Assembly: GCA_015059945.1 (NCBI GenBank)
Contig: SUZJ01000005.1
Coordinates: 124,001-188,000 of the forward strand
Length of the DNA: 64,000 nucleotides
Reading direction: 5' to 3'
Source: Rikenellaceae bacterium
Lineage (GTDB): Bacteria; Bacteroidota; Bacteroidia; Bacteroidales; Rikenellaceae
Shown here: positions 3,697 through 61,392 of the stretch, in pieces
Position numbering within the stretch: the stretch's first letter is position 1
Layout: each line of letters starts with the position of its first letter
Notes under the pieces: model-generated
What the model was told of the DNA's origin: nothing
Database searches by the model: none
What the model saw: the letters and a program-made list of their open reading frames with translations, nothing else
Made by a program: the position numbers and the translations under genes

Positions 3697-3718
3697 CAGA
3701 CAGACCTAAGTCTGATAT

Positions 3719-3772
3719 AAGGTCATTAAGGACCTTAAGGTCTTTAAGGGCATTAGTGGCTTTAAGGTCATT
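3719..3772. repeat. 9-bp tandem array (AAGGTCATT type)
   Basis: Six consecutive 9-mers are visible: AAGGTCATT, AAGGACCTT, AAGGTCTTT, AAGGGCATT, AGTGGCTTT, AAGGTCATT. Related arrays occur at 7818-7880, 12614-12649 and 61302-61370. Confidence 0.85.
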
Positions 3773-5847: not shown

Positions 5848-5872
5848 CCCAAGAGGGTAAACCGACATAAAA

Positions 5873-5907
5873 AAACCGAGTGCAACGTAATAAATTGCAC
5901 TCGGTTT
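5873..5907. terminator. Hairpin between glsB-like gene and porX
   Basis: AAACCGAGTGCAA and TTGCACTCGGTTT form a 13-bp perfect stem with a 9-nt loop. The plus side lacks a long T tract; the minus side would end in a T run. It probably ends transcription of the lipid genes. Confidence 0.6.
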
Positions 5908-5932
5908 GCATTATATTTATAAACCGAATTGC

Positions 5933-5940
5933 TACTTTTG
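5933..5940 (+). promoter_or_regulatory. -7 box upstream of porX
   Basis: TACTTTTG, 36 bp before the porX ATG, fits TAnnTTTG. The -33 element is not clear. Confidence 0.4.
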
Positions 5941-5976
5941 TAGAGAGATATACACACCAACCGACAAGCCAATCCT

Positions 5977-7545: not shown

Positions 7546-7589
7546 AAAAACGCAAAGAAAGAGCGACTGCTGCGTTACGCTTCAAAAAA

Positions 7590-7632
7590 ATGCCCCTCAT
7601 TTACGTCTTGTAAACTGCGGGGCATTTTTTTT
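7590..7632 (+). terminator. Terminator of porX
   Basis: ATGCCCC and GGGGCAT with internal TTTAC/GTAAA pairing form a hairpin flanked by A and T runs, so it could act in both directions. Confidence 0.8.
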
Positions 7633-7756
7633 CGCAAGCCTTGCATTCATCTCTTTCTTTGTGTTTTTTACCGCTCCCGAAGCTACGGCGTCGCTTTTTT
7701 GTGCGCCTTGTACTCGCCTAATTATTTGCGTTTTTTTGTGTCTAACGTCGAGCGCC

Positions 7757-7810
7757 TGACAGACCCCTCCGCCCCGTTGGGGCACCTCCCCTAACTTAGG
7801 GGAGGAGTTT
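7757..7810. repeat. REP-like palindromic repeat (CAGACCCCTCCGCC type)
   Basis: A CAGACCCCTCC lead, a CCCCGTTGGGG hairpin, then a CTCCCCTAACTTAGGGGAG palindrome. An inverted relative occurs at 10137-10188, and related blocks lie in the long repeats at 1.9 and 2.6 kb. The rest of 7633-8083 contains no convincing gene. Confidence 0.75.
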
Positions 7811-7817
7811 TTTTATT

Positions 7818-7880
7818 AAGGCCCTTAAAGTCTTTAAGGTCATTAAGGAGCCCTATAACTCCTATTGCTCCTATTACCTC
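7818..7880. repeat. 9-bp tandem array
   Basis: Consecutive 9-mers: AAGGCCCTT, AAAGTCTTT, AAGGTCATT, AAGGAGCCC, TATAACTCC, TATTGCTCC, TATTACCTC. Confidence 0.75.
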
Positions 7881-7903
7881 TCATTGACCAGCAAAGGAAA
7901 AAC

Positions 7904-7931
7904 TTTCCATTTTCCATTTTCAATTTTCCAT
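7904..7931. repeat. Heptamer array (TTTCCAT)4
   Basis: TTTCCAT, TTTCCAT, TTTCAAT, TTTCCAT, then poly-T. It is one of several arrays with 7-bp period in the window. Confidence 0.8.
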
Positions 7932-8083
7932 TTTTTTTGCTATTTTCGCAAAAAAGTAACACCCCCGATGCAACGTTTTGCATCCCTCGTGCGTCATATA
8001 ATAAAGCAGGGAGGGTAACTAACAAGGGGCTTTTACCCCCCCCCCTGTACACATAATTGTTTAACTTACAAATTGTTACAGGT

Positions 8084-8785
8084 ATGAAAAGAGCACTTTT
8101 TATTCTGCTTGCGATCTTCGCATTCGAGAGTCTGGCCAGTGGCCAAAAGACCGTTTACGCTCCACAGCAGCTCATCGACGTAGTCTACAAAGTCGATGGC
8201 ACCACTCTGCGAGGCACTATTGTAGAGCAAACCCCCAATGTCGACTACACCCTGCTGACACTCGATGGCCACACCATCAAGATTGATGCCCTGCAAATCG
8301 AGAAGATTGTCAAAGAGCCCCTCGCTACGGCCACCATCGTTACCGAAAATCACAACTACAACTACAACTACAATCCCTACATAGTCTGCAAGTTCGACGA
8401 AGAGGGCAACCCCATATTCCCCCTCGACAGTCGCTCGGCGTTCTTCAGGTCGCTCATCATCCCCGGCTTGGGACAGATGTACAACGGTCAAACCCTCAAA
8501 GGTGCGGCTCTGTTGGGCGGCTGTGTGGCAGGTGTCTTGGGCGTAACTTGGGGTACCTCTCTGGCCAATACTGCTATGGGTGAGGATATTATAGGCATCA
8601 CCTCGTTGGCTGTAGGAGTGGGTTGCTACCTCTATTCGCTCATTGATGCTCCGCTCTATGCAAAGCGTTGGAACAAGCAGCACGGCTTCCGTTTCAATGG
8701 CAATGGCTACGTTTCGGTGGCGCCCGTAGTGGTCGTGGGGCGCAATATCGACGGCCTGGGTGTAGGCGTGTCGGTAGGCTTTTAG
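8084..8785 (+). CDS. Secreted or membrane protein with DUF5683-like C-terminal region
   Basis: Unknown function. A 233-residue protein with an N-terminal signal peptide (MKRALFILLAIFAFESLASGQ). The middle region (about 24-95) looks like a small beta domain. The C-terminal half has LIIPGLGQMYNGQTLKGA, a hydrophobic Gly/Ala-rich stretch and YSLIDAPLYAKRWN. The latter motifs recur in the protein at 9518-10066 and resemble the DUF5683-type membrane family of Bacteroidetes. ATG 8084 is chosen over the track's 8057 because it starts the signal peptide. It is the first of three consecutive secreted-protein genes. Confidence 0.75.
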   Translation: MKRALFILLAIFAFESLASGQKTVYAPQQLIDVVYKVDGTTLRGTIVEQTPNVDYTLLTLDGHTIKIDALQIEKIVKEPLATATIVTENHNYNYNYNPYIVCKFDEEGNPIFPLDSRSAFFRSLIIPGLGQMYNGQTLKGAALLGGCVAGVLGVTWGTSLANTAMGEDIIGITSLAVGVGCYLYSLIDAPLYAKRWNKQHGFRFNGNGYVSVAPVVVVGRNIDGLGVGVSVGF

Positions 8786-8850
8786 TGGGCAGTTTTTTGA
8801 TGGGTAGGCAAGAGATTAACACCTAATTACAAAACATATAACCCTTTCTT

Positions 8851-9468
8851 ATGAAGAGAACTATACTACTCGTTTGTGCCGTAGTGGTGGCAGCTTGGGC
8901 AGGGGCTCAGGAGGTGGCTCCGCAGCAGTCGCAGGCCCCAAAGGCCACCCCGTGGACACTTAATCTGTCGGTAAACCTGCCTACTTGGCAACAGCTCGGT
9001 ATGTACGACGATTGGGGGTTCAAGGATGTGGTGCCCGGAGGAACTACAAGCCACGACCTCGATTACATCGACCTAATGGCCAGTGTAGACCTCACAAGAC
9101 ACGTGGTCGATTGGTTCTCGCTGGGGGTTCGTACCACCATTGGCTACCGCAGTTATGCCTGTTACGACTCGCGTGGGGCCTCGCTGGGTACCGTTAGGCA
9201 GTTGCCCATAACCATCGTTCTGGCGGGCAAGGCCACCTACTACAAGGGCCGAGCATTTGAGCTCTATGGCAACTATGGCTTGGGTGCTTGCTTTGGACTG
9301 AATGTCACCGACTACTACTGGCGCCCTCGATTTGGAACGTATCTCTACGACCTCTTTGGCGAGTTCTACCCCGTATGTATGAACTTTGGCCACAAGAGAG
9401 GCCTATTTGCAGAGTTGGGCTTCGGTAGTAAGGGTTTGGCTAATGTGGGCTTCTTCACCACCTTTTAG
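8851..9468 (+). CDS. Predicted outer-membrane beta-barrel protein
   Basis: Function unknown. It has 205 residues with a clear signal peptide (MKRTILLVCAVVVAAWAGAQ). The mature part alternates aromatic and polar residues in strand-like segments (WTLNLSVNLP, WFSLGVRTTIGYRSY, AFELYGNYGLGACFGLN) and ends LANVGFFTTF, with the terminal Phe typical of outer-membrane barrels. It lies 65 bp after the preceding gene and 49 bp before the next, suggesting an operon of envelope proteins. Confidence 0.7.
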   Translation: MKRTILLVCAVVVAAWAGAQEVAPQQSQAPKATPWTLNLSVNLPTWQQLGMYDDWGFKDVVPGGTTSHDLDYIDLMASVDLTRHVVDWFSLGVRTTIGYRSYACYDSRGASLGTVRQLPITIVLAGKATYYKGRAFELYGNYGLGACFGLNVTDYYWRPRFGTYLYDLFGEFYPVCMNFGHKRGLFAELGFGSKGLANVGFFTTF

Positions 9469-9517
9469 CCCGCCCCACCCGCATAACAAGATTAACCACA
9501 AAACCAAGTAGATATAT

Positions 9518-10066
9518 ATGAAGAAGATTGTTTTGTTGCTCGTGGCTATGGTGGCGAGCGCTGCCCTTTGCGCAGGGCAGGAACAGCAGGAGCAAAAAGC
9601 AGCAGGCGAGGGTAGCCTCTACGCCTCGGAGAGGTTGTTGGGCTACGACCAAGCCATTGAGGTCGATGGCCAGTTGCTCAAACCCAAGAGCCCTCTGCTG
9701 GCGGCTGCGGCATCGTTTGCACTGCCCGGATGGGGCCAAAGGCTCAATGGCCAAAAGCAAAAGGGCAAGACGATTATGTGTGTGTACTGTGCCAGCGTGG
9801 GTGTGTCGATGCTGGCGTTGCAAATTCCCTATGAGATGGACATCTTTGGCATTGCCGACACTATGGCCTTTGTGGGTATGCTGACGAGCTTTGGCACTTG
9901 GCTCTACTCGCTAATCGATGCACCCGTTTATGCCAGCAAGTGGAACGATGCCAACGGCTTTGAGCTGGCCGAGGGTACTTGGCTGAGGGTAGACCCACGC
10001 GTGGGAATGGCTAATCCCTACGGCACAACCCCTGCGGTAGGCCTCGGAGCAACGATAACTTTTTAG
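9518..10066 (+). CDS. Secreted or membrane protein, paralog of the 8084 gene
   Basis: Function unknown. It has 182 residues with a signal peptide (MKKIVLLLVAMVASAALCAGQ). The region from about 65 to 150 repeats the key motifs of the protein at 8084-8785: SFALPGWGQRLNGQKQKGKT near residue 67 and WLYSLIDAPVYASKWNDANGFEL near 127. The two share a core but differ at the N-terminus, since this one lacks the beta-rich segment. The C-terminus ends GLGATITF, like an outer-membrane strand. Probably the third gene of one operon. Confidence 0.72.
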   Translation: MKKIVLLLVAMVASAALCAGQEQQEQKAAGEGSLYASERLLGYDQAIEVDGQLLKPKSPLLAAAASFALPGWGQRLNGQKQKGKTIMCVYCASVGVSMLALQIPYEMDIFGIADTMAFVGMLTSFGTWLYSLIDAPVYASKWNDANGFELAEGTWLRVDPRVGMANPYGTTPAVGLGATITF

Positions 10067-10080
10067 GATTGAAAATTAGT

Positions 10081-10109
10081 AGCCCCCTCTGACAATAGCA
10101 GAGGGGGCT
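10081..10109 (+). terminator. GC-rich hairpin after envelope-protein operon
   Basis: AGCCCCCTCTG and CAGAGGGGGCT form a perfect 11-bp stem with a 7-nt loop. A weak T-containing tract follows, so termination is plausible but not certain. Confidence 0.5.
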
Positions 10110-10136
10110 GTGGTATTTAAGGGCCTTAAAAAACTA

Positions 10137-10188
10137 CTCCTCCACTAAGTTAGGGGAGGTGCTGCGGAGCAGCGGAGGGGTCTGTTAG
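10137..10188. repeat. REP-like palindromic repeat, inverted orientation
   Basis: CTCCTCCACTAAGTTAGGGGAGG, then GCTGCGGAGCAGC and GGAGGGGTCTG. This is the reverse-oriented relative of the element at 7757-7810. A GTTAGACGTTAGAC heptamer pair follows directly. Confidence 0.7.
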
Positions 10189-10202
10189 ACGTTAGACTAC
10201 AA

Positions 10203-11567
10203 TTACAAGTCGCTATTCCATTGGCCGCCGGCTTCGGGGTAGACCATTGGGCGGGGCTCCTTGGGCAGAGCCTTCATTGCCAAGTAGCTCTCGTAGAGGC
10301 AGATTCCGTTGTGGGCGTTGCGCGCAAGCGAGAACATAACCACCGAGGGGTGGCCCTTCGACGAGTAGTACATCCTCTGGGCGCGCTCGGTGTAGGCACT
10401 CTTCCACAACGGAGTATTACTGGGCGACCCCTTGGCTTGGCTGCCCGTGCAGTCGATGTCGGCTTGGTCGCACACCATCAGGCCCAATCGGTCGCACAGC
10501 ACATAGAACTCCTCGGGCTGGGGATAGCGGGGTGCTACCAGGTTGTAGCCCTCCTCTTTGGCCTGGCGGAGCAGCTCGGAGGTCCTCTCGGCACTCTCGG
10601 CCCAATTGCACTCGGTAGCCCTTATCTCTACGGGGCTGCCATTGAGCATCAAGCCACCATCTTTCAGCTCGGCAGTGCGGAAGCCAAACTCTATCTGGGC
10701 AAACTCTTTGATGCGTGTCTCGTGCTTGGTATAGACCACTATGCGGTAGAGGTTGGGCTCCTCGGGGCTCCACCTCTTGACCTTGGGTACGCGGGCAAAG
10801 AAACTGACCGTATCGCGCGAAAGCATACGGGTGGTGAGTCGCTTGTTGTCCTGAGCAAGCACCTCGCCCTCGGGCGAGTGGAGCTCGTAGTGAATGTGGT
10901 ACTCCTTGCTGTTGAGCAGGTAGCTCTGCATAACTACGCCAAGGTTGAGCAGTCCGTCGCCTGCGGCATTGAAGGTTGTGGCCGTAACAAAGTCGTAGAC
11001 CGCAACGCGAGGCGATGCCACCAAGTGGGCACTCAGAAACTTACCCTCTGGGGTGCGCGAAGCCTCAATGGCGCGGGCAGCGTAGTCGCTGTGCAGGGTT
11101 ATGCTTATGGTGTTGTGGTTCTCCTTCAGAGCCTTGGTAAGGTCAAACTCAACGCGGCCTGCCGTCTGGGCCGAGTAGCCCACCTCGGCATCGTTCACCG
11201 CTACGCTCACAGCCCCATCGGCACCCTCGATGCGCAGCACCAACTGGCGGTCGTCGTACTTGTAGTTGCGTTTGAAGCGAGCGGTGTAGCGGGTGCGGCC
11301 ACCTTCCATCTGCTCGATGTGCCAGTTGCCCAGCTCGATGAGCATCTCGCCCTGGGCATCCGATATCATAGCCTCGCGAGTGGGGTAGTGGACTACTGCT
11401 CGGTGGGCAGGCAGTGCTTCGCGCTCGGTCATCTCGGGCTTCGCGAGGGCCACCTCGGCAGCCTCGGGCTCGACATACTCAAACGGATATTCCCACTGGC
11501 CAAATGCGCACAGTGTGGTGGCGAAAATCGCAACAAGCGTAGATAATATCACTCGGTGTTTCATCAT
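10203..11567 (-). CDS. Truncated glycoside hydrolase family 2-like protein, probably inactive
   Basis: Secreted protein of about 455 residues after a signal peptide (ATTLCAFGQ cleavage region). It follows the GH2 beta-galactosidase plan: a sugar-binding-like domain (about 60-190 from the ATG), an Ig-like domain ending FGFRTAELKDGGLMLNGSPVEIRA, and the start of a TIM barrel. The region aligning with the GH2 acid/base motif (SLGNE) reads FSLARNAHNG, so the catalytic Glu is missing. The protein stops at VYPEAGGQWNSDL, about where a full LacZ-type enzyme would still have over 500 residues. It may be a carbohydrate-binding remnant. Start chosen at the tandem ATGATG (11567/11564) after GAGAGAA. Confidence 0.72.
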   Translation of the reverse strand: MMKHRVILSTLVAIFATTLCAFGQWEYPFEYVEPEAAEVALAKPEMTEREALPAHRAVVHYPTREAMISDAQGEMLIELGNWHIEQMEGGRTRYTARFKRNYKYDDRQLVLRIEGADGAVSVAVNDAEVGYSAQTAGRVEFDLTKALKENHNTISITLHSDYAARAIEASRTPEGKFLSAHLVASPRVAVYDFVTATTFNAAGDGLLNLGVVMQSYLLNSKEYHIHYELHSPEGEVLAQDNKRLTTRMLSRDTVSFFARVPKVKRWSPEEPNLYRIVVYTKHETRIKEFAQIEFGFRTAELKDGGLMLNGSPVEIRATECNWAESAERTSELLRQAKEEGYNLVAPRYPQPEEFYVLCDRLGLMVCDQADIDCTGSQAKGSPSNTPLWKSAYTERAQRMYYSSKGHPSVVMFSLARNAHNGICLYESYLAMKALPKEPRPMVYPEAGGQWNSDL

Positions 11568-11584
11568 TTCTCTCTTTTTTTGGC

Positions 11585-11592
11585 TATATTTG
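11585..11592 (+). promoter_or_regulatory. -7 box upstream of HsdR-N-like gene
   Basis: TATATTTG lies inside the longer ORF-track reading frame. A transcript from here would start after the ATG at 11556, which argues for a downstream non-ATG start. Confidence 0.5.
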
Positions 11593-11612
11593 GGCCTAAA
11601 ATTACAACTCTT

Positions 11613-12038
11613 TTGCAAAAGTACGAAAAATATCCACAATTAAACTTCCCTCGCGTAACTTTACGCTGTCGTCGCGGAGCCACCGAGGGCGAGGTTGAGG
11701 TATTTGTGCCCCTGCGTGGGTGGCTGGTGCTCACCCCCGAGGAGTGGGTGCGTCGTCACGTTGTGGCCCACCTGACGGAGCGTATGGGTGTGCCGCCCAC
11801 ATCCATCAGCGAGGAGCACCCCGTACTGCTCAACGGACAGCACCAGAGGGCCGACATTGTGGTCTATGGGCCCGACTCGAAGCCTTGGTTGCTGGTCGAG
11901 TGCAAAGCCCCCGATGTGGCCATTGACGACCAAGTAGTGGCCCAAGCTGTCAGGTACAACAGTGTAGTGGGGGCAGCCCAAATTATGGTTACCAACGGCC
12001 TCGAAACAAGGGTGTTCGATGCAGTCGCCCCTCGTTAG
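11613..12038 (+). CDS. Small protein with type I restriction HsdR N-terminal-like domain
   Basis: About 141 residues resembling the HSDR_N_2 family of short stand-alone proteins common in Bacteroidetes. It contains LVLTPEEWVRRHVV (about 37-50) and a PD-(D/E)xK-type nuclease core, RADIVVYG...WLLVECKAP (about 78-100). The helicase parts of HsdR are absent and no HsdM/HsdS genes are nearby, so it is not a full restriction system. The family-like start KYPQLNFP has no ATG just ahead; TTG 11613 is proposed because a -7 box covers the track ATG at 11556. It ends overlapping the stop of the convergent gene by 4 bp. Confidence 0.72.
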   Translation: MQKYEKYPQLNFPRVTLRCRRGATEGEVEVFVPLRGWLVLTPEEWVRRHVVAHLTERMGVPPTSISEEHPVLLNGQHQRADIVVYGPDSKPWLLVECKAPDVAIDDQVVAQAVRYNSVVGAAQIMVTNGLETRVFDAVAPR

Positions 12039-12355
12039 AGTAGCAGTGCGCGGCTCGACATAAGGTTGTCGCTTAGGTTGTCTACGGCCTGAGTCAGTTC
12101 TTTTACGGCATCGAGTATGCGGTCGCTCTCGGTCAGGGGAGCGCGCTTGCCGTAGCCCTCAAAGGGCCTCACAAACAGGTAGTTCTCGCCTCCATCGGTG
12201 AACATAACATTATCGACATAGTAGATGTCGTTATAGTTGTCTATGTCGGCATCGTAGGCCTTTACGAGTGTGCCCAGTGGGGGTATGGCACTGAGCGCCA
12301 CTTGGCTGCCTGTGTGCCACCCCTCGGTGTAGTGTATTAAGGTGAAGCTATACAT
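12035..12355 (-). CDS. Hypothetical protein
   Basis: Not recognised. It has 106 residues from MYSFTLIHYTEGW. The sequence is mixed polar/aromatic with an acidic middle (KAYDADIDNYNDIYYVDN) and a helical C-terminus (DRILDAVKELTQAVDNLSDNL), with no signal peptide or membrane segment. The longer track start at 12391 is rejected because its first 12 codons are the heptamer repeat array. It converges on the HsdR-N-like gene with a 4-bp overlap of stop codons. Confidence 0.55.
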   Translation of the reverse strand: MYSFTLIHYTEGWHTGSQVALSAIPPLGTLVKAYDADIDNYNDIYYVDNVMFTDGGENYLFVRPFEGYGKRAPLTESDRILDAVKELTQAVDNLSDNLMSSRALLL

Positions 12356-12388
12356 TGGGAATTGAGAATTGGGAATTGAGAGTTGAGG
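12354..12388. repeat. Heptamer array (ATTGAGA)5
   Basis: ATTGGGA, ATTGAGA, ATTGGGA, ATTGAGA, GTTGAGG in perfect 7-bp phase. The array directly abuts the ATG of the gene at 12355. Confidence 0.85.
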
Positions 12389-12480
12389 CAAATGCGAGTA
12401 AGCGAGGGCAGAGGCTGCTTGCAGACTATGCCGAGCGTGAGCATTTTAGAGCAAGCGTCAGCTTGGTCAATTGAGAATTA

Positions 12481-12649
12481 ACACACGCCCCCGTCGCTGC
12501 GCGACACCCCCTCTAACTTAGAGGGGGAATGTGCGCGGGGACGCGCACGCAGTTTCGACCACTCCTCGGCCCTGACGGGCCACTCCCCTATCGTAGGGGA
12601 GGAGTTCTTTTCTAAGGCCCTTAATTACCTTAAAGTCCTTAATGACTTG
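12481..12649. repeat. Compound REP-like repeat plus 9-bp array
   Basis: In order: an ACACACGCCCCCGTCGC element with CCCCCTCTAACTTAGAGGGGG; a TGTGCGCG...CGCGCACGC inverted pair; a CCACTCCTCGGCCCTGACGGGCCACTCC element with CTCCCCTATCGTAGGGGAG; then 9-mers AAGGCCCTT, AATTACCTT, AAAGTCCTT, AATGACTTG. A similar compound unit occurs at 26647-26755. The stretch 12389-12480 ahead of it has no gene. Confidence 0.75.
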
Positions 12650-12668
12650 GGTTGTTTAGACGTTTGAC

Positions 12669-12699
12669 AAAAAAGGCCCACTCGCGTGGGCCTTTTTTT
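12669..12699 (-). terminator. Bidirectional terminator after slyD
   Basis: A runs, AAGGCCCAC, loop TCGC, GTGGGCCTT, then T runs. It sits 1 bp beyond the slyD stop on the minus strand. Confidence 0.88.
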
Positions 12700-12700
12700 A

Positions 12701-13240
12701 TTAGTGGCAGTGGCCACCCTCGCAGCCGCTCTCGCAGTCACCCTCGCAACCACAATCGTCGCAACCGCAACCGCACGAGTGGGGATAGTCGTCGTCGGTA
12801 GCCTCGTGAACGTCTACAACCTCGCCCTCGAAGTTCAAAGTCTTGCCCGCCATTGGGTGGTTGAAGTCCATCTTCACTGCCTCGTCGGTAACCTCTACTA
12901 CCACGCCTACGATGGGCTGGCCCATCTGAGTCATCATAGGAATACGGTTGCCAATGGTCAGCAGCCCCTCCTCGATCTTGCCCTCAATCTCGAAGGCAGC
13001 CTTGGGCACTGCAATAATCATCTCCTCTTGGTGCACACCATAGCCCTCCTCGGGCGAAAGGGTGAACGAATACTTGTCGCCAGCCTCCAAGCCCAGCAGG
13101 TACTCCTCGAACTTGGGCAGCAACATACCAATGCCATATACAAACATCAGTGGGGTCTCTTTGGTTGCCTGGTCGGCCACCTGGCCATCTACGGTAAGGG
13201 TGTAGCTGATTGCTACAGCCATCTCATTTCCAATTTTCAT
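12701..13240 (-). CDS. slyD: FKBP-type peptidyl-prolyl isomerase with metal-binding tail (SlyD-like)
   Basis: Cytoplasmic proline isomerase and chaperone. The FKBP core starts VAISYTLTVDGQVAD, contains the GMLLPKFEEYLLGLEAGDK and FTLSPEEGYG motifs (about 38-70), and is interrupted by the IF (chaperone) insert, about 75-125. FNHPMAGKTLNFEGEVVDV follows near 130. The last 30 residues are rich in Cys, His, Asp and Gly (CGCGCDDCGC, GGHCH), the metal-binding tail that in SlyD binds nickel and zinc. The 179-residue length fits the family. A terminator follows at once. Confidence 0.92.
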   Translation of the reverse strand: MKIGNEMAVAISYTLTVDGQVADQATKETPLMFVYGIGMLLPKFEEYLLGLEAGDKYSFTLSPEEGYGVHQEEMIIAVPKAAFEIEGKIEEGLLTIGNRIPMMTQMGQPIVGVVVEVTDEAVKMDFNHPMAGKTLNFEGEVVDVHEATDDDYPHSCGCGCDDCGCEGDCESGCEGGHCH

Positions 13241-13289
13241 AGTGTTGTGTTTTGTGTTTTATATAGGAATTTTCAATTTTTATCTTTAC

Positions 13290-13334
13290 ACACGCCCCCG
13301 CCCTTCGGGCACCCCCTCTAACTTAGAGGGGGAA
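13290..13334. repeat. REP-like element ACACACGCCCCCGC...
   Basis: Nearly identical to 2735-2783, with TTCGGG in place of TTTGGG in the small hairpin. It lies between slyD and the GNAT gene. Confidence 0.8.
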
Positions 13335-13371
13335 TGACTTTGAGCTTGCTAATAATCTTGAATTTTCAATT

Positions 13372-13905
13372 CTATTTCAGTGGGTTGATTAGTTGGAGCA
13401 TATATTCGTCGAGCCAGTCGGTGGTGGTCAGCACCCACTCCCTTTTGAGGCCCACAACGCTGAAATCTTTGCTCTTAAAGAGGTTGAGGCTACGGGTGTT
13501 GTTAGACAGCACGTTGCAGTAGAGCTGGTTGAGCCCCAGTATCTGGAACGAGTAGCGTATCAGGGCCTGCAAAGCACTCGAAGCGTAGCCCTGTCCCTCA
13601 TCGTCTTTGTCGTATATGAGCACACCCACACCCGCACGGCGGTTATAGGGGTCGATGTCGAATAGGTCGATGGTGCCCACTGCCTTGTGGTTGCTCTTCG
13701 ACTCGATGACAAGCCTCAACTGGCGAGTCTCGTAGATGTCGTACCTTTGCTCGTCGATAAACCTACGCAAGATGTACTTCGAGAAGGGGGCCATTGTGCC
13801 ACTCACTTTCCACACGTTGGGGTCGTTCTCCCAGCGGTAGAGTACATCTACATCCTCGGGCTCGAGAGCTCGCAGTTTGATTATGTCGGTTTCCAGTGCG
13901 TTCAT
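13372..13905 (-). CDS. GNAT-family N-acetyltransferase (RimL/SpeG-like)
   Basis: Predicted acetyl-CoA-dependent N-acetyltransferase of 177 residues. The N-terminus (IIKLRALEPEDVDVLYRWEND) is typical of RimJ/RimL-type proteins. The acetyl-CoA loop is in the YDKDDEGQGYASSALQAL segment (about 97-114), followed by GLNQLYCNVLSNNTRSLNLFKSKDF, the classic fold end where side chains contact CoA. The substrate cannot be told from sequence; polyamines or a protein N-terminus are both possible. A heptamer array sits 8 bp upstream of the start. Confidence 0.85.
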   Translation of the reverse strand: MNALETDIIKLRALEPEDVDVLYRWENDPNVWKVSGTMAPFSKYILRRFIDEQRYDIYETRQLRLVIESKSNHKAVGTIDLFDIDPYNRRAGVGVLIYDKDDEGQGYASSALQALIRYSFQILGLNQLYCNVLSNNTRSLNLFKSKDFSVVGLKREWVLTTTDWLDEYMLQLINPLK

Positions 13906-13913
13906 ATATTATT

Positions 13914-13945
13914 GTCTACCGTCGACCGTCTACCGTCGACCGTCA
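13914..13945. repeat. Heptamer array (GTCKACC)4
   Basis: GTCTACC, GTCGACC, GTCTACC, GTCGACC, GTCA in exact 7-bp phase. A similar GTCGACC array is at 19928-19955. Confidence 0.85.
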
Positions 13946-13975
13946 TTTTTTAATTATTCAATTCTAAGTAGGCAC

Positions 13976-15208
13976 TTATAAGCCAATTACTTTGTTGCGG
14001 ATGAGCATAGCTGCGCCCAGGGCTCCTGCGTCGGCTCCCATCTGGCTCAGGCGGAACGAAGTATCTTTGTAGACCAAGTTCATCGAGTACTTGTTGGTGG
14101 CCGACTTGAGGGGCAGCATCAGGTAGTCGCCGGCGTGGGACATATTGCCACCGATAATCACCACCTCGGGGTTGAAGATGTTTATCAAAAAGGCAATACT
14201 CTTGCCAATCTTCTCGCCCGCCTCCTCGATGAGCTCGATAGAGAGGTTGTCGTCGTTCTTGGCCGCCGCAATGATGTCGTCGATGTGGATGCTATCGCCC
14301 GCAGCCCACTTGTCCCTGAGGATGGTATTTACACCCTCCGAAATCTTTTTCACAATCTTGTTCTCTATGGCAATGCCACTAACCTCGGTCTCCAAACATC
14401 CCTTCTTGCCACACGAGCAGATAATTTCGTTGTTGAAGAATGGTGTGTGGCCAAACTCGCCCGCAAAGCCACTCTTGCCATAGTAGAGCTTGCCGTCGGC
14501 TATGATGCCAATGGCCACGCCTCGGCCCAGGTGGAGGTAGAGCACGTTCTTCTCGTCCAGAGTGTTGCCCGAGTAGTACTCGGCATAGCAGCGAGCCCTG
14601 GTGTCGTTCTCGATGAGCACTCCCAAGCCCGTAGCCCTCTCGATAGCCTCTTTGAGCGACCCCTCGCCACCGGTAAAGTACATATAACTATGGCCCGTCT
14701 GGGGATTTACACGGCCCGCAATGCAGGCACCCAAGCCCAGTATCTTGCTGCGCTCGACGCCACAAGTGTCCAGAAACTCGTTTATGTGGGCACAAATGTC
14801 GGCCAAACACTTGGCATCGTCGACAAGCGTAAAGGGGGTGTGGGTGCGCGAAACGATGATGTTGTTCTTCAAGTCGGTGAGCACACAGCACAAGTAGTCG
14901 CGGCCAATGTCGATGCCCGCGAAATAGATAGCCGTATTGGCCAGGCCGAAGATGTTGGGCCTGCGACCACCTGCGGTCTCGACCTTGCCGTTGTCGACCA
15001 CAATGTCCTCGCCCACCAGCTCGCCCACCAGTTTGGTCATAGTGGGGACACTGATGTGCAGCGCCTTGGTCAGCTCGGCCAGCGTACACTGCCCATTGAC
15101 GGCCATATAGGCTATGATGCTCTGCTTTATCAGCATATTCTTGTGGCTAATGCCTTTGAGTGCTGCATCGCCATCGTGCTGATAAAAGAAATCTTTTAAT
15201 AGTGCCAT
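13976..15208 (-). CDS. ROK-family transcriptional regulator (NagC/XylR type)
   Basis: Sugar-responsive repressor, 410 aa. The N-terminal winged-helix region (about 20-80) includes the CTLAELTKALHISVPTMTKLVGELV helix-turn-helix. The ROK sugar-kinase-like domain follows: FAGIDIGRDYL near residue 95, ENDTRARCYAEYY near 200, GIIADGKLYYGKSGFAGEFGH near 235, and the zinc motif CSCGKKGCLE near 265. Keeping both the HTH and the zinc site indicates a regulator rather than a kinase. No sugar operon adjoins it, so the target is unknown. Upstream on its strand is a TATATTTG -7 box (15242-15249). Confidence 0.9.
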   Translation of the reverse strand: MALLKDFFYQHDGDAALKGISHKNMLIKQSIIAYMAVNGQCTLAELTKALHISVPTMTKLVGELVGEDIVVDNGKVETAGGRRPNIFGLANTAIYFAGIDIGRDYLCCVLTDLKNNIIVSRTHTPFTLVDDAKCLADICAHINEFLDTCGVERSKILGLGACIAGRVNPQTGHSYMYFTGGEGSLKEAIERATGLGVLIENDTRARCYAEYYSGNTLDEKNVLYLHLGRGVAIGIIADGKLYYGKSGFAGEFGHTPFFNNEIICSCGKKGCLETEVSGIAIENKIVKKISEGVNTILRDKWAAGDSIHIDDIIAAAKNDDNLSIELIEEAGEKIGKSIAFLINIFNPEVVIIGGNMSHAGDYLMLPLKSATNKYSMNLVYKDTSFRLSQMGADAGALGAAMLIRNKVIGL

Positions 15209-15241
15209 AGGGTTGTTTGGCTAAAATTTTATTTAGCACCA

Positions 15242-15249
15242 CAAATATA
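15242..15249 (-). promoter_or_regulatory. -7 box for ROK regulator gene
   Basis: TATATTTG on the minus strand, 33 bp ahead of the start codon. No TTTG at the ideal distance. Confidence 0.45.
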
Positions 15250-15416
15250 ATAACAAATTTTAGAAACTCAGCCTAATTCTTAAATTTTTTTCAAAATTTT
15301 TTCAAATTTTTTTACAAACAATGGTGTGAGTTGGTAAATTTTTGGTCTAACGGGGCTGATAGGTGGGGTGGGGGTTGTGGTAAGTTTGGGAAGAGTTGGG
15401 AATAAAATCGAAAAAT

Positions 15417-15451
15417 AATTCTCAATTCTCAATTCTCAATTTTCAATTCTC
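15417..15451. repeat. Heptamer array (AATTCTC)5
   Basis: AATTCTC, AATTCTC, AATTCTC, AATTTTC, AATTCTC in exact phase. It lies in the 380-bp AT-rich region between the divergent ROK and mce genes, which contains no gene, only promoters for both. Confidence 0.85.
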
Positions 15452-15471
15452 ATTTATATTGCGTAAATTTG
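15441..15471 (+). promoter_or_regulatory. Candidate promoter of the mce operon
   Basis: TTTC (15441-15444), a 19-nt spacer and TAAATTTG (15464-15471). The -33 element falls inside the heptamer array. The transcript would have a leader of about 110 nt containing a GCGCGTGCGTAGCG-rich stretch. Confidence 0.5.
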
Positions 15472-15588
15472 CGACGTTTGTATGCGCGTGCGTAGCGTAT
15501 GCGCGGGCGTTATGAACATTGGAGCAGAACAAACTATGCTAAAAACAAACACAATAAACATTTACTTTTAACTAAAAAATCACAAGTT

Positions 15589-16011
15589 ATGAAGATTTCG
15601 CACATCGAGCACCTCGGTATTGCTGTGAAGAGCCTCGAGGAGGCAATTCCTTACTATGAGGAGATTTTGGGCCTCAAATGCTACAACGTAGAGGAGATTG
15701 CAGACCAGAAAGTTAAGACCGCTTTCTTCAAGGTAGGTCAGACCAAGATTGAGCTGTTGGAGCCCACCTGCCCCGAGAGCACCATCGCCGGCTTTATCGA
15801 AAAACGTGGCGAGGGTATCCACCACATTGCTTACGCCGTAGAGGACGTAGCCGAGTGCTTGGCCGAGGCCGAGGCTAAAGAGGTACGCCTGATTGACAAG
15901 GCTCCCCGCAAAGGCGCCGAGGGTCTGAACATCGCTTTCCTCCACCCCAAATCGACCAAAGGTGTGCTGACCGAGCTCTGCTGCCCCGGTTGCAAATGCG
16001 AGGAGGAGTAG
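15589..16011 (+). CDS. mce: Methylmalonyl-CoA epimerase
   Basis: Converts (S)- and (R)-methylmalonyl-CoA in the succinate-propionate pathway. The 140-residue protein is a vicinal-oxygen-chelate (glyoxalase-fold) enzyme with two beta-alpha-beta-beta-beta halves. Metal-ligand regions are visible: HLGIAV near residue 9, KIELLEP near 48, GIHHIAYAV near 80 and TELCCP near 130. The end is Cys-rich (CCPGCKCEEE). Start 15589 is used rather than the track's 15499 since homology begins at MKISHIEHLGIAV. It precedes the decarboxylase genes and feeds them the proper isomer. Confidence 0.94.
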   Translation: MKISHIEHLGIAVKSLEEAIPYYEEILGLKCYNVEEIADQKVKTAFFKVGQTKIELLEPTCPESTIAGFIEKRGEGIHHIAYAVEDVAECLAEAEAKEVRLIDKAPRKGAEGLNIAFLHPKSTKGVLTELCCPGCKCEEE

Positions 16012-16092
16012 ACCACACAATCACACAGACACAAGACAAACTAACTAACTTTTTTATAAACTTAACGCAAGGGGCCCAAGAGGGAAAAGCCA

Positions 16093-16153
16093 AATTGAAA
16101 ATTGCAAATTGAGAATTGAAAAAATTTTGATTTGGGCCAGTTAGACGTTAGAC
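16093..16153. repeat. Heptamer arrays (AATTGAA)4 and (GTTAGAC)2
   Basis: AATTGAA, AATTGCA, AATTGAG, AATTGAA at 16093-16120, then GTTAGAC twice at 16140-16153. Both lie between mce and mmdA. Confidence 0.75.
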
Positions 16154-16193
16154 GTTCCCAGAGGGTACACCCCGCGTTACACAACAAAACACT

Positions 16194-17756
16194 ATGTCGG
16201 AGATTCAAGACAAAATTGCGAAGCTGATTGAGCTTCGTGAAGAGGCAAAGATGGGTGGCGGTCAGAAACGTATCGACGCTCAGCACGCAAAAGGTAAGTA
16301 CACCGCTCGCGAGAGGTTGGCAATGATGCTTGACGAGGGTAGCTTCGAGGAGTTCGATATGTTCGTAACTCACCGTTGCACCGATTTCGGTATGGAGAAG
16401 AGCCACCCACTGGGTGATGGCGTAGTTACCGGTTACGGTACCATCGACGGCCGTCTGGTTTATGTCTTTGCACAGGACTTTACCGTATCGGCAGGCTCGC
16501 TGTCGCTCACTATGGCCGAGAAGATTTGCAAGATTATGGATATGGCAATGCGCAATGGCGCACCCGTGATTGGTCTGAACGACTCGGGTGGTGCACGTAT
16601 CCAGGAGGGTGTAAACGCTCTGGCAGGCTACGCAGGCATCTTCCAGCGTAACGTGATGTCGAGTGGTGTTATTCCCCAGATTTCGCTCATTATGGGCCCC
16701 TGCGCAGGTGGTGCAGTTTACTCGCCCGCGCTGACCGACTTTGTTATTATGAAGAAAGACACCAGCTATATGTTCCTGACCGGTCCAAAGGTTGTTAAGA
16801 CCGTTGTGGGCGAGGATGTAACTCAGGAGCAGTTGGGTGGTGCCAGCGTTCACGCAAGCAAGAGTGGTGTTGCTCACTTTGCAGTAGACACCGAGGAGGA
16901 GGCTATCGCCATCACTCGCAAGCTCATCTCGTACTTGCCCCAGAACAATATGGAGGATACCCCCGTTGTTGCTTGCTCGGACCCCATCGACCGCTTGGAG
17001 GATTCGCTCAACGACATTATTCCCGACAACCCCAACAAGGCCTACGATATGTACGAGGTTATACGTGCTGTGGTTGATAATGGCGAGTTCTTGGAGTCGC
17101 AGGAGGCTTATGCACGCAACATCATCACCGGTTTTGCAAGGTTCAACGGCCAGAGCGTAGGTATCATTGCCAACCAGCCCAAGTTTATGGCAGGTGTGCT
17201 TGATATCAAGGCTTCGTGCAAGGCAGGTAGGTTTGTACGCTTCTGCGATGCGTTCAACATTCCTATCGTTACCTTCGTAGACGTTCCCGGCTTCTTGCCC
17301 GGTACCGGTCAGGAGTATGGTGGCGTTATCGACCACGGTGCAAAACTGCTCTACGCATACTGCGAGGCTACTGTACCTAAGGTTACCGTTACCCTGCGTA
17401 AGGCCTACGGTGGTGCCTATATCGTTATGAGCTCGAAACACATCCGCGGTGATATCAACTACGCTTGGCCTTGCGCTGAGATTGCAGTTATGGGTGCCAG
17501 CGGTGCTGTTGAGGTGCTCAACGCCAAGGAGATTGCCGCTGCCGAGACTCCCGAGGCTAAGGCTGCCCTTATCGCTGCCAAAGAGCAGGAGTACAAAGAC
17601 AAGTTCTCGAATCCTTACAGGGCTGCCAGCTACGGCTATATCGACGATGTTATCGAGCCTCGCAACACTCGCTTCCGCGTGATTAGGGCATTGCAGAGTT
17701 TGGCAACCAAACGTCTGGCTAACCCTGCTAAGAAACACGGCAACATTCCATTGTAG
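16194..17756 (+). CDS. mmdA: Methylmalonyl-CoA decarboxylase alpha (carboxyltransferase) subunit
   Basis: Carboxyltransferase that moves CO2 from methylmalonyl-CoA to the biotin carrier, yielding propionyl-CoA. The 520 residues match the acyl-CoA carboxyltransferase family (beta-type PccB/MmdA). Two crotonase-like halves are visible: [14 protein letters not shown] with [12 protein letters not shown] (N-half, about 125-185) and [17 protein letters not shown] with [13 protein letters not shown] (C-half, about 360-420). With the OadG-like, biotin and MmdB genes next door it forms a membrane sodium pump rather than a propionyl-CoA carboxylase, which would need a biotin carboxylase subunit. Confidence 0.94.
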
Positions 17757-17793
17757 TTTTTTTTGACCGATTAACTAAAACCAAAATTATACT

Positions 17794-18162
17794 ATGAATA
17801 TGCTTAATTTGGGTTGGTCGGAGATTTTGTGGGTAACGCTCATTGGCTTCTCGCTGGTGGCACTCACTCTGGCTCTGCTTATCTTCGTCATCAAGCTGTT
17901 TGGTGTGGCCTTTGCAGCCAACCACAAGCAGAAGGTGGCCAAGAAGAGCGCTGCCAAAGGCGAGGCTGCACCTGCGGAGGTTGAACTTCCCACAATGGTT
18001 TCGGCCGAGACCGTTGCCGCTATTGCAATGGCAATCCGCCTGAGCGTTGGCGAGGACCACGACCGCGAGTCGGAGGTTATCACCATCCAGAAAATCAAAC
18101 GTGCCTACTCGCCTTGGAACTCTAAGATTCACGGCCTGACACAACTCCCCGATCGTAAATAA
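17794..18162 (+). CDS. Sodium pump decarboxylase gamma/delta subunit (OadG-like)
   Basis: Small membrane anchor of the decarboxylase complex, 122 aa. One N-terminal transmembrane helix (about residues 10-38, ILWVTLIGFSLVALTLALLIFVIKLFG) is followed by a Lys/Ala/Glu-rich linker and a C-terminal cytoplasmic segment (ETVAAIAMAIRLS, then AYSPWNSKIHGLTQLP) that in this family contacts the carboxyltransferase. It lies 37 bp after mmdA and 30 bp before the biotin carrier gene, in the standard operon order. Confidence 0.88.
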   Translation: MNMLNLGWSEILWVTLIGFSLVALTLALLIFVIKLFGVAFAANHKQKVAKKSAAKGEAAPAEVELPTMVSAETVAAIAMAIRLSVGEDHDRESEVITIQKIKRAYSPWNSKIHGLTQLPDRK

Positions 18163-18192
18163 CAATCACAGCGTAAGAGTAAATAGAACAAA

Positions 18193-18645
18193 ATGAAAAA
18201 CTATAATCTTAAAATCAACGACAACGAGTATAACGTGCAGCTCGACAAACTCGATCACCTGTCGAAACAGGCTCGCGTAATCGTTAATGGAACCGAGTAT
18301 ATCGTAGAGGTTGAGGGCGTTAAACCCCAGCCCAGCAAGAAACCCCAGGTTGCTGCTGCTACCTACACCGCAACTCCCACTACCGCAGCTCCCGCAGCTC
18401 CCGTAGCTGCACCCAAGGCTGCTGCCGCAGGTGGCTCGAAGATTACCTCGCCCCTGCCCGGTACTGTACTGAGCATCAACGTAGCCGTAGGCGACAGCGT
18501 TGCCGCAGGTCAGACCGTAGCTGTGTTGGAGGCTATGAAGATGGAGAACAACATTTCGGCCGACAAGGCAGGTGTTGTTAAGGAGATTTGCGTAAACAAG
18601 GGCGCCTCGGTTATGGAGGGCGACGCTCTGATTATTCTGGGCTAA
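18193..18645 (+). CDS. mmdC: Biotin carboxyl carrier subunit of methylmalonyl-CoA decarboxylase
   Basis: Carries the carboxyl group between the transferase and the membrane pump. It has 150 residues: an N-terminal segment (about 1-45), an Ala/Pro/Thr-rich flexible linker (about 50-80), and a biotinyl domain with EAMKMEN, where K116 is the predicted biotinylation site, about 35 residues from the end as expected. Start ATG 18193 with its position after the OadG-like gene is unambiguous. Confidence 0.93.
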   Translation: MKNYNLKINDNEYNVQLDKLDHLSKQARVIVNGTEYIVEVEGVKPQPSKKPQVAAATYTATPTTAAPAAPVAAPKAAAAGGSKITSPLPGTVLSINVAVGDSVAAGQTVAVLEAMKMENNISADKAGVVKEICVNKGASVMEGDALIILG

Positions 18646-18667
18646 CGAAAAGGAGGAGGAATAGATT

Positions 18668-19873
18668 ATGACAGTACTTCTTCAATCGTTTGTTGGCCAG
18701 AGCATCTCGGACTTCCTGAACTCGACAGGCTTTGCCCAGATGTTCGTAGCTGCCGGTGGCTGGAAGTGCCTTGTAATGTTGGCACTCTCTTGCTTCCTGC
18801 TCTACCTGGCTATCAAAAAGCAGTACGAGCCACTGCTCTTGCTGCCTATTGCATTTGGTATGTTGCTCACCAACCTTCCTGGTGCTGAGATGTTCCACTC
18901 CGACCTGTTTGCAGGTGGCCACGTTCACTGGCAGGAGTTGGCCGCTAAGGGTGGCTTGTTGGACTACCTCTACCTGGGTGTTAAGTGTGGTATCTACCCC
19001 TGCTTGATTTTCATCGGCGTAGGTGCAATGACCGACTTTGGTCCACTGATTGCTAACCCCAAGAGCTTCTTGATGGGTGCAGCTGCTCAGATTGGTATCT
19101 TTATGACCTTCATTGGTGCTTATGCTATGGGCTTTACCCCCGAGCAGGCAGGTTCGATTGGTATCATTGGTGGTGCCGATGGTCCTACCTCTATCTACCT
19201 GACCTCTAAGTTGGCTCCCGAGCTGCTTGGTCCTATCGCTATCGCTGCCTACTCGTATATGGCGCTGGTACCCGTTATCCAGCCTCCTATTATGAGGGCT
19301 CTGACCAGCGAGAAGGAGCGTCAGATTAAGATGACTACCCTGCGTCAGGTGTCAAAGACCGAGAAGATTATCTTCCCCGTAGTTATCACCATCATCATCG
19401 CTCTGTTGTTGCCCAGTGCTGCACCTCTGATTGGCTGCTTGATGCTCGGTAACCTGATGAAAGAGTGTGGCGTGGTTGATCGCCTTGCCAAGACCGTTCA
19501 GAACGAGCTGATGAACATCGTGGTTATCTTCTTGGGTATTACCGTAGGTGCTACTGCTACTGCCGAGTCGTTCTTGAACTTCAAGACTCTGGGTATCTTG
19601 GCACTTGGTATCGTAGCCTTCTCGTGTGGTACCGCAGGTGGTGTGCTGCTGGCCAAGTTGATGAACTTGTTCTTGCCCGAGGGTAAGAAGATTAACCCTC
19701 TGATTGGTTCGGCAGGTGTGTCGGCAGTGCCTATGGCTGCCCGCGTATCGCAGAGCGAGGGTCTAAAAGCCAATCCATCGAACTATCTGCTTATGCACGC
19801 TATGGGTCCCAACGTATCGGGTGTTATTGGCTCGGCCGTTGCCGCAGGTATCCTGCTCTGCTTCTTGGGCTAG
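18668..19873 (+). CDS. mmdB: Na+-translocating decarboxylase beta subunit
   Basis: Integral membrane subunit that decarboxylates carboxybiotin and exports sodium. It has 401 residues and about nine hydrophobic segments. Family signatures include [15 protein letters not shown] near residue 115, [13 protein letters not shown] near 165, and the terminal [15 protein letters not shown] with [19 protein letters not shown]. The conserved Asp in GGADGP is part of the sodium site in OadB. Last gene of the mce-mmd operon, with an AGGAGGA ribosome site ahead of its ATG and a terminator after it. Confidence 0.94.
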
Positions 19874-19927: not shown

Positions 19928-19955
19928 GTCGACCGTCGACCGTCGACCGTCAACC
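19928..19955. repeat. Heptamer array (GTCGACC)4
   Basis: GTCGACC three times, then GTCAACC, in exact 7-bp phase. It lies between the convergent mmdB and rpiB genes. Confidence 0.87.
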
Positions 19956-19966
19956 GACTTTCAATT

Positions 19967-21024: not shown

Positions 21025-21102
21025 GAATTGAGAATTGAGAGTTGAGAATTGAGAATTTTCTCAATGTCCTATAACTCTTATTATGTCCTATAAATCCTAT
21101 TA
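21025..21102. repeat. Heptamer array (GAATTGA)5 followed by 9-bp array
   Basis: GAATTGA, GAATTGA, GAGTTGA, GAATTGA, GAATTTT (21025-21059), then 9-mers TCCTATAAC, TCTTATTAT, GTCCTATAA, ATCCTATTA (21067-21102). Both array types sit side by side in an 80-bp gap and run into the luxS stop. Confidence 0.8.
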
Positions 21103-21567
21103 TTTCTTGCCGAGCAACTTGCGTACCAGTGCGCCATACTCTTTCAGGGCGGCATTTGAGCCCTCGATGTCGTAGAGCTCGGGGTTGCCACACTGCTCGA
21201 CGGTAAGGCCCGGAACGTCGCTCTTCTCTTTCAGATTCGACTGCTCTTCGCACACCTGAGCCACAGCCTCCATAACCTTGCGCTGCGAGGTGAAGCCCTT
21301 GACAATCAGGTAAAAACCAGTCTTGCAACCCATAGGTGCAAACGACACAACCTTGTTGCCCAACTTTTCGCGCAGATAGTGGGCCATCAGGTGCTCGATG
21401 GTGTGGATAGCCTCGGGGGTAAGGTACTGGTGCTCCATAGGTGCTCGGAAGCGCATATCATACGAGCGCAGGGGGTAGATGCCGGCTACGGTGTAGACCG
21501 AGCGCAGATAGAAACCACGCTCGAGGGTGGTGTGGTCGACGGCAAAAGATGCTACTTTGGATTTCAT
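21100..21567 (-). CDS. luxS: S-ribosylhomocysteine lyase
   Basis: Cleaves S-ribosylhomocysteine to homocysteine and DPD, the precursor of autoinducer-2. It has 155 residues. The metal site HTIEH (H55-H59) is present, C81 in PMGCKTGF is the catalytic Cys, and the EQCGNPELY segment near 125 supplies the third metal ligand. Length and motifs match LuxS fully. With the downstream nucleosidase gene it completes the activated methyl cycle. Confidence 0.96.
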   Translation of the reverse strand: MKSKVASFAVDHTTLERGFYLRSVYTVAGIYPLRSYDMRFRAPMEHQYLTPEAIHTIEHLMAHYLREKLGNKVVSFAPMGCKTGFYLIVKGFTSQRKVMEAVAQVCEEQSNLKEKSDVPGLTVEQCGNPELYDIEGSNAALKEYGALVRKLLGKK

Positions 21568-61301: not shown

Positions 61302-61392
61302 TAAGGAGCATTAGGGGCTTTGAGGTCATTAAGGTTGTTAAAGGCTTTAATGATTATAAGAGTTATATATAGCTCCTATAGCTCCTAATACC
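61302..61392. repeat. Degenerate 9/10-bp array
   Basis: AAGGAGCATT, AGGGGCTTTG, AGGTCATTA, AGGTTGTTA, AAGGCTTTA, then ATAGCTCCT and ATAGCTCCT. It belongs to the same family as the array at 3719-3772. Confidence 0.65.

What the first reader, a model, noticed from the sequence alone, without database searches (positions are those of the whole stretch)
15417..15451. Families of heptameric tandem repeats scattered through intergenic DNA
At least seven gaps hold arrays in exact 7-bp phase with different motifs: TTTCCAT (7904), ATTGAGA (12354), GTCKACC (13914), AATTCTC (15417), AATTGAA and GTTAGAC (16093, 16140), GTCGACC (19928), GAATTGA (21025). Different sequences but the same period, always between genes, mean the period is what is conserved. 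Heptanucleotide repeats are known in cyanobacteria (STRR); I am not aware of a described Bacteroidales counterpart with several motifs.
Basis: seen in the sequence. Interest (0 to 1): 0.66.

Follow-up and report, generated by a model that had tools for sequence, protein, structure and literature searches.

The report
Heptamer arrays as intergenic module joints
The spaces between genes in this gut Bacteroidales bacterium and part of its genus hold hundreds of short arrays repeating every 7 bases, and these arrays act as joints at which small dispersed DNA modules come and go, a richer version of heptamer repeats already known in other bacteria.

Summary
All eight window arrays are real. In 864 kb of the same genome, intergenic DNA has 83 period-7 runs against 4 in shuffles. 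Only periods 7 and 9, and their multiples, stand out.

AATTCTC, ATTGAGA, GAATTGA and AATTGAA are one family on either strand (A). TTTCCAT is a variant of A. GTCKACC and GTTAGAC form a second family (B). Sister species add C (AATTTTG), GGCTAAC, GTCAGCA, AGTAATT and TAACTGA.

Three regularities are new here. (1) Read outward from the nearest gene edge, arrays have fixed polarity (A 50:14, 22:4 and 20:3 in three genomes). (2) Their inner side meets dispersed modules. An 80/81-bp module, R1, sits between complete AATTNNN units in 24 of 25 copies. (3) Between sister species, arrays with conserved flanks mostly change by 7 or 14 bp. Five R1 presence/absence sites differ by 80+7k bp.

Arrays and R1 co-occur within the genus (14 both, 8 neither, 1 R1 only). 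No reverse transcriptase or RAYT hit was found in the own genome.

Best reading: a known kind of repeat (heptanucleotide SSR, STRR-like, TAACTGA-like), in a new variant where arrays are in-phase docking joints of a mobile intergenic mosaic. The integrating enzyme and any cellular function are unknown.

The parts
15417..15452 (-). Family A array (AATTCTC on +, AATTGAG on -), 5.1 units, between the ROK gene and the methylmalonyl-CoA epimerase-like gene
   Evidence: TRF; lag-7 27/29
7904..7934 (-). Family A variant array (TTTCCAT/TTTTCAA on +), after a REP-like hairpin and 9-bp arrays
   Evidence: TRF; sequence
12354..12387 (+). Family A array (AATTGGG/AATTGAG), begins inside the start codon of the minus-strand gene ending at 12355
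   Evidence: TRF
12388..12468 (+). R1 module, 81 bp, inserted between AATTGAG-type units
   Evidence: blast and junctions; 23 copies reported in the own genome
12469..12479 (+). Family A unit(s) on the far side of R1 (AATTGAGAATT)
12483..12529 (.). REP-like palindromic module (ACACGCCCCCGTCGC..TAACTTAGAGGGGGAA)
   Evidence: sequence; family with 48 blast hits in the sampled own genome
12654..12668 (-). Degenerate family B units (GTTTAGACGTTTGAC) closing the mosaic before the terminator
   Evidence: sequence; same layout in G005
13914..13944 (+). Family B array (GTCTACC/GTCGACC alternating), just upstream of the acetyltransferase-like gene
   Evidence: TRF
16092..16122 (+). Family A array (AATTGAA/AATTGAG), stop side of the gap
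   Evidence: TRF
16140..16156 (-). Family B array (GTTAGAC on +, GTCTAAC on -), start side of the same gap, convergent with 16092
   Evidence: TRF; polarity
19928..19958 (+). Family B array (GTCGACC), an exception to the outward polarity rule
   Evidence: TRF
21025..21057 (+). Family A array (GAATTGA), 4 nt upstream of the start of the minus-strand nucleosidase-like gene
   Evidence: TRF
7815..7874 (.). Companion 9-bp arrays (ATTAAGGTC, CCTATAACT)
   Evidence: TRF; genome-wide period-9 excess
21064..21103 (.). Companion array of TCCTATAA-type units (TRF period 19 and 9) next to the 21025 array
   Evidence: TRF

Best explanation
The arrays are the joints of a mobile intergenic mosaic. Shown: arrays lie at the outer edge of inserted noncoding modules, in fixed polarity to the flanking genes. 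The 80/81-bp module R1 docks only at a unit boundary, between two complete AATTNNN units. Arrays and modules turn over quickly between sister species while array steps stay at 7 bp. Inferred: arrays lengthen and shorten by slippage or unequal recombination in whole units. Units are overwritten by conversion from the many other arrays in the genome. Modules enter and leave through the arrays, either by in-phase recombination between arrays or by an integration that duplicates a 7-bp AATTNNN target, which would itself seed and grow arrays. The lineage carries this non-autonomous system largely as tolerated intergenic DNA. A function for the host is not needed to explain what is seen.
For: Period-7 excess. 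Polarity replicated in three genomes. Inner flanks are more repetitive than outer flanks (p 3e-7 own, 2e-4 G013, 8e-3 G017). R1 flanked in phase by AATTNNN units in 24 of 25 copies, and the two NNN equal in 18 of those 24, although NNN differs between loci (GAG, CTC, TTG, TTC); R1 length always 80 or 81. R1 present or absent at orthologous arrays in sister species, with net changes 73, 73, 80, 80 and 87 bp, i.e. 80+7k. The own gap 12356-12700 (345 bp) is 66-109 bp without such a mosaic in six relatives. Of 21 sister-species arrays with both flanks conserved, 8 keep their length and 7 change by 7 or 14 bp, while array-less gaps change mostly by 1-3 bp. Heptamers and R1 co-occur in the genus (14 both, 8 neither, 1 R1 only; Fisher p 2e-5, not corrected for kinship).
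Against: No recombinase or transposase was identified: no RAYT or RVT_1 hit in the own genome, DDE_Tnp_1 in no array-bearing genome, and an IS1595 transposase only in own, G005 and the array-free G007. R1 has no obvious terminal inverted repeats. Many arrays carry no R1. The 7-bp duplication is only one of five length outcomes (+87), so target-site duplication itself is not shown. Motifs with no AATT (B, GGCTAAC, GTCAGCA) are not explained by R1.
Confidence: 0.5

Rival explanations
1. Plain replication slippage with an intrinsic 7-nt (and 9-nt) step, as proposed for prokaryotic heptanucleotide SSRs. The arrays are neutral satellites and the modules merely insert into them.
For: 7-bp length steps and few others. 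Several unrelated motifs share period 7. Heptamers are the commonest 5-11-nt SSR class in most genomes (Mrazek 2007 as cited in PMC4679880).
Against: Slippage cannot place the same two motifs at more than 100 unlinked gaps, in fixed polarity, with R1 always at one phase. Array lengths stay equal while several units change together (L256 1805, L265 13019).
Confidence: 0.27
2. Regulatory sites: the arrays bind a protein or act in mRNA near starts and stops, as suggested for TAACTGA upstream of start codons in Beggiatoaceae.
For: Arrays sit 0-60 nt from gene edges. In same-direction gaps, B is on the start side in 14 of 17 cases and A reads AATTGAG after stops in 23 of 31 stop-side cases, giving stop codons in every frame.
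Against: Polarity of A is the same at 5' and 3' edges, so it is not tied to transcription. Presence varies between sister species at the same genes, and array-free congeners do without them.
Confidence: 0.12
3. Templated 3'-end addition by a telomerase-like reverse transcriptase (as DRT10 makes 9-nt tandem repeats) at DNA breaks in intergenic DNA.
For: Outward polarity on both sides of gaps and units of 7 and 9 nt would fit; DRT10 makes 9-nt repeat cDNA (PMC12632851).
Against: No RVT_1 match in the own genome or in array-bearing G010, G014, G017 and G019. Mixed and drifting units do not look templated.
Confidence: 0.03
4. Miniature transposon with heptamer arrays as its terminal inverted repeats.
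For: Gaps with two arrays are mostly convergent, array-> ... <-array.
Against: The two ends are usually different families (B with A in 10 of 14 convergent pairs in the own genome), interiors differ, and single arrays are common.
Confidence: 0.05

Closest known systems
TAACTGA direct repeats of marine Beggiatoaceae, some Cyanobacteria and five Bacteroidetes (MacGregor 2015, PMC4679880)
   Same: Heptamer arrays, mostly intergenic, 2-6 units, oriented with respect to genes, some overlapping stop codons, 7-nt indels between related Cyanothece strains; TAACTGA itself occurs in this genus (L156, L206, L252) and in 14 of 393 Bacteroidales genomes sampled
   Different: There one motif, mainly before start codons. 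Here several families at once, polarity at both 3' and 5' edges, companion 9-mers, and dispersed modules docked in the arrays
STRR heptamers of cyanobacteria and GGGNATC heptamers of Xanthomonas/Nostoc (PMC4692102; three heptamers in Calothrix cited there)
   Same: Intergenic heptanucleotide tandem repeats, several motifs per genome, many loci
   Different: Different sequences, not G-rich, no G4 potential, and module docking not described in the passages read
REP/BIME mosaics and MITEs, e.g. BrickBuilt of Porphyromonas gingivalis (PMC4596501)
   Same: Dispersed non-coding modules in intergenic DNA of a Bacteroidales genome, mosaic composition, tandem repeats associated with a small mobile element
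   Different: No RAYT in the own genome, no terminal inverted repeats on R1, 7-bp rather than 23-bp units, array as the joint rather than the interior
DRT10 tandem-repeat synthesis (PMC12632851)
   Same: Short tandem units of 9 nt, polarity of 3'-end growth
   Different: No reverse transcriptase hit in the own genome or in most array-bearing genomes tested; chromosomal, degenerate arrays

Membership tests
Heptanucleotide long SSR (Mrazek class; STRR-like) | Tandem 7-bp units in excess of chance, mostly intergenic | tested here: met
   83 against 4 in 123 kb intergenic; 16 in 738 kb coding before start refinement, none deep in genes after it
Heptanucleotide long SSR (Mrazek class; STRR-like) | Copy number varies in whole units between close relatives | tested here: met
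   G013/G017 arrays with conserved flanks: 8 unchanged, 7 by 7 or 14 bp, 2 other small or irregular, 4 larger changes
TAACTGA repeat family (MacGregor) | Unit TAACTGA as the main repeated motif | tested here: not met
   Main units are AATTGAG and GTCTAAC; TAACTGA x3 absent from own genome, 2.4 units once (L038 15181)
TAACTGA repeat family (MacGregor) | Fixed orientation towards a downstream start codon | tested here: inconclusive
   Family B 14 of 14 one way on the start side, but family A is oriented to both gene edges
MITE / transposon with 7-bp target duplication | Terminal inverted repeats | tested here: not met
   R1 ends GCAAATGC.. and ..CTTGGTC/..TTTGTC are not inverted copies
MITE / transposon with 7-bp target duplication | Direct duplication of the target at empty versus filled sites | tested here: inconclusive
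   All five orthologous sites differ by 80+7k, but only one by +87
MITE / transposon with 7-bp target duplication | A transposase that acts in trans is present | tested here: inconclusive
   Y1_Tnp, DDE_Tnp_1 and IS1595 families do not follow the arrays; other transposase families were not tested
REP/RAYT system | REP-associated tyrosine transposase | tested here: not met
   PF01797 absent from all genus members searched but G007, which lacks the A, B and C arrays
DRT10 / telomerase-like RT product | Reverse transcriptase in the genome | tested here: not met
   PF00078 none in own (93% complete) and in four further array genomes
Protein-binding regulatory array | A bound protein or effect on expression | not testable with these tools
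   Needs transcriptome or binding data

The most novel reading that the evidence does not exclude
An undescribed integration system recognises AATTNNN, duplicates 7 bp, and leaves heptamer arrays as stacked target-site footprints, with R1 as one of its cargo modules. The widely seen period of 7 in prokaryotic SSRs would then be, at least in this lineage, the stagger of an enzyme and not a slippage preference of DNA polymerase.
Probability: 0.18. Interest if true: 0.8.

Novelty: new variant of a known kind. Interest (0 to 1): 0.52.

Why it matters
Why heptanucleotide repeats dominate among 5-11-nt repeats of bacteria has stayed open since it was noticed. This genus offers a clean test bed: closely related species with and without arrays, a precise module that docks at one phase, and fixed polarity to gene edges. 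It lets slippage, recombination and enzymatic integration be told apart by comparing strains. It also shows that intergenic DNA in these small gut genomes can be rebuilt between species at about 95% identity while the genes stay put.

Tried and rejected
Telomerase-like templated addition: suggested by polarity and by units of 7 and 9, rejected for lack of any RVT_1 hit in the own genome. RAYT-driven REP spread: no Y1 transposase. Terminal inverted repeats of a MITE: ends of paired arrays are of different families. Stop-codon supply as the cause of polarity: fits A after stops but not A before starts, nor C, whose outward strand has no stop. Phage or plasmid origin of the 12354-12690 mosaic: no match in 50,697 phage and 72,556 plasmid records. 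Known RNA: no Rfam family besides two tRNAs in the window. Resemblance of GTTAGAC to the integron core site GTTRRRY (from memory): judged chance, not tested. The G009 and G020 stretches first read had few or no arrays; G020 later proved rich in family C elsewhere.

Full report
What is there. Tandem Repeats Finder recovers all the listed arrays at the stated places, and within them 83-100% of positions match the base 7 nt on. In the window alone the bulk lag-7 signal is weak (z 1.6), but exact runs are far above shuffles (5 against 0.05). The window lies at G000:C8:124001-188000 in a 1.81-Mb draft genome of 13 contigs. The nearest named records are metagenome-assembled Tidjanibacter (Rikenellaceae) from animal guts. 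Intergenic DNA has 83 exact period-7 runs against 4 in second-order shuffles; at 12 or more matching positions it is 45 against 1.6. Period 9 is also in excess (22 against 6). Periods 8, 10, 11, 12 and 13 are at background. Coding DNA shows multiples of three instead. After gene starts were refined with a codon model, none of 99 merged arrays lies more than 30 nt inside a gene.

Motifs. The apparent variety is mostly rotation and strand. Of the 99 arrays, 42 are AATTGAG and 19 AATTGAA in canonical form, with AATGGAA-type relatives (family A). GTCTAAC, GTCGACC, GTCTACC and GTCAACC form family B. Related species add C (AATTTTG), GGCTAAC, GTCAGCA, AGTAATT and TAACTGA. The pattern AATTGAGAATTGAGAATT occurs at 121 places in the own genome, in seven congeners, and almost nowhere in 77 other genomes of the family and order; the reversed control gives none. 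GTCTAAC arrays occur in the own genome and six congeners, and C arrays in a wider part of the genus, including G020, which lacks A and B. So families are gained and lost independently.

Polarity. Read outward from the nearest gene edge, family A reads AATTGAG in 50 of 64 arrays of the own genome, 22 of 26 in G013 and 20 of 23 in G017. B reads GTCTAAC in 19 of 25, 2 of 2 and 7 of 7. C is consistently the other way, read as AATTTTG outward in 0 of 4, 0 of 6 and 1 of 9. G013 and G017 share ancestry, so these are not fully independent. Gaps with two arrays are mostly convergent, often B at one side and A at the other; window 16092/16140 is an example. Window 19928 is an exception.

Anatomy. The inner side of an array usually meets a dispersed module, while the outer side is more often unique gene-edge DNA (p 3e-7, 2e-4 and 8e-3 in three genomes). 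The modules are REP-like palindromes, small hairpins, 9-bp arrays, and R1. In the window the gap 12356-12700 reads: A array, R1 (12388-12468), A units, REP-like palindromes, 9-mers, degenerate B, terminator. The same gap is 66-109 bp, without such a mosaic, in six relatives. R1 is 80 or 81 bp in 25 of 25 scored copies and lies between complete AATTNNN units in 24 of 25. The three variable bases agree on both sides in 18 of those 24, although they differ between loci (GAG, CTC, TTG, TTC). R1 and heptamer arrays co-occur in the genus: 14 genomes both, 8 neither, 1 with a single R1 and no A, B or C array (Fisher p 2e-5, uncorrected for kinship).

Turnover. G013 and G017 are sister species (about 95% nucleotide identity). 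Of 157 orthologous gaps, 30 hold arrays in both, 10 in one only. Of 21 arrays with conserved flanks, 8 keep their length, 7 differ by 7 or 14 bp, one by 2 bp, one by 46 bp, and four by larger changes, of which three are R1. Array-less gaps mostly change by 1-3 bp. Several arrays keep their length while a run of units changes together (AATTGAG to AATTGAA or AATGGAA; for example L256 1805). Substitution per site in arrays (0.096) is about that of other gaps (0.084), so the joint change of units, not the rate, is the notable point. R1 is present in one species and absent in the other at five cleanly alignable sites, with net differences of 73, 73, 80, 80 and 87 bp, all 80+7k.

Mechanism. Shown: in-phase docking, whole-unit steps, fixed polarity, co-occurrence with R1. 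Inferred: growth by slippage or unequal exchange, overwriting by conversion among arrays, and passage of modules through arrays. Whether R1 integrates by its own 7-bp target duplication is open: one of five sites fits +87 directly and the others need a unit lost. No mobilising enzyme was found; several transposase families were not tested and the draft is 93% complete.

Comparison with the known. Heptanucleotide SSRs are a recognised class, and TAACTGA repeats are reported in Beggiatoaceae, cyanobacteria and five Bacteroidetes, with gene-oriented placement and 7-nt indels (PMC4679880). TAACTGA x3 occurs in 14 of 393 Bacteroidales genomes sampled here, and the reversed control AGTCAAT is itself amplified in a few others, most in G362 (84 places), which points to lineage-specific heptamers elsewhere in the order. 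The present case is therefore a new variant of a known kind. What I did not find described, in the open literature searched, is the docking of a precise module at array unit boundaries and the outward polarity at both gene ends.

Noticed in passing
window 3718-3772, 7815-7874, 21064-21103, 61368-61387: Companion 9-bp tandem arrays (TTAAGGTCA and TCCTATAAC types), the only other period in excess in intergenic DNA genome-wide (22 against 6; 40 and 29 runs in the G013 and G017 samples).
   Followed up: partly
window 12483-12605, 13300-13335, 7765-7805: REP-like palindromes (CCCCTCTAACTTAGAGGGG and CTCCCCTAACTTAGGGGAG) in tens of copies in the sampled genome although no RAYT gene is present; spread mechanism unknown.
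   Followed up: partly
G362, G128 (reversed control): The control motif AGTCAAT is itself amplified as 7-bp arrays in other Bacteroidales genomes (84 and 19 places), so other lineages have their own heptamers.
   Followed up: no
L156 (G005:C19), 5039-19450: One congener carries at least nine different heptamer motifs in 20 kb plus several 9-mers, the richest stretch seen.
   Followed up: no
L026 4867, L030 8643: Two R1 copies sit after family B units (GTCTAACGTC|R1|AAACCGACCTAAG), joining B to 9-mer modules.
   Followed up: no
G000:C10:27377-27811: One IS1595-type transposase in the own genome; it does not follow the arrays across the genus (also in G005 and array-free G007).
   Followed up: partly
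window 15589-19873: Gene cluster of a methylmalonyl-CoA epimerase-like glyoxalase, carboxyltransferase, biotin carrier and OAD_beta subunit (probable sodium-pumping decarboxylase) with heptamers in its gaps.
   Followed up: partly
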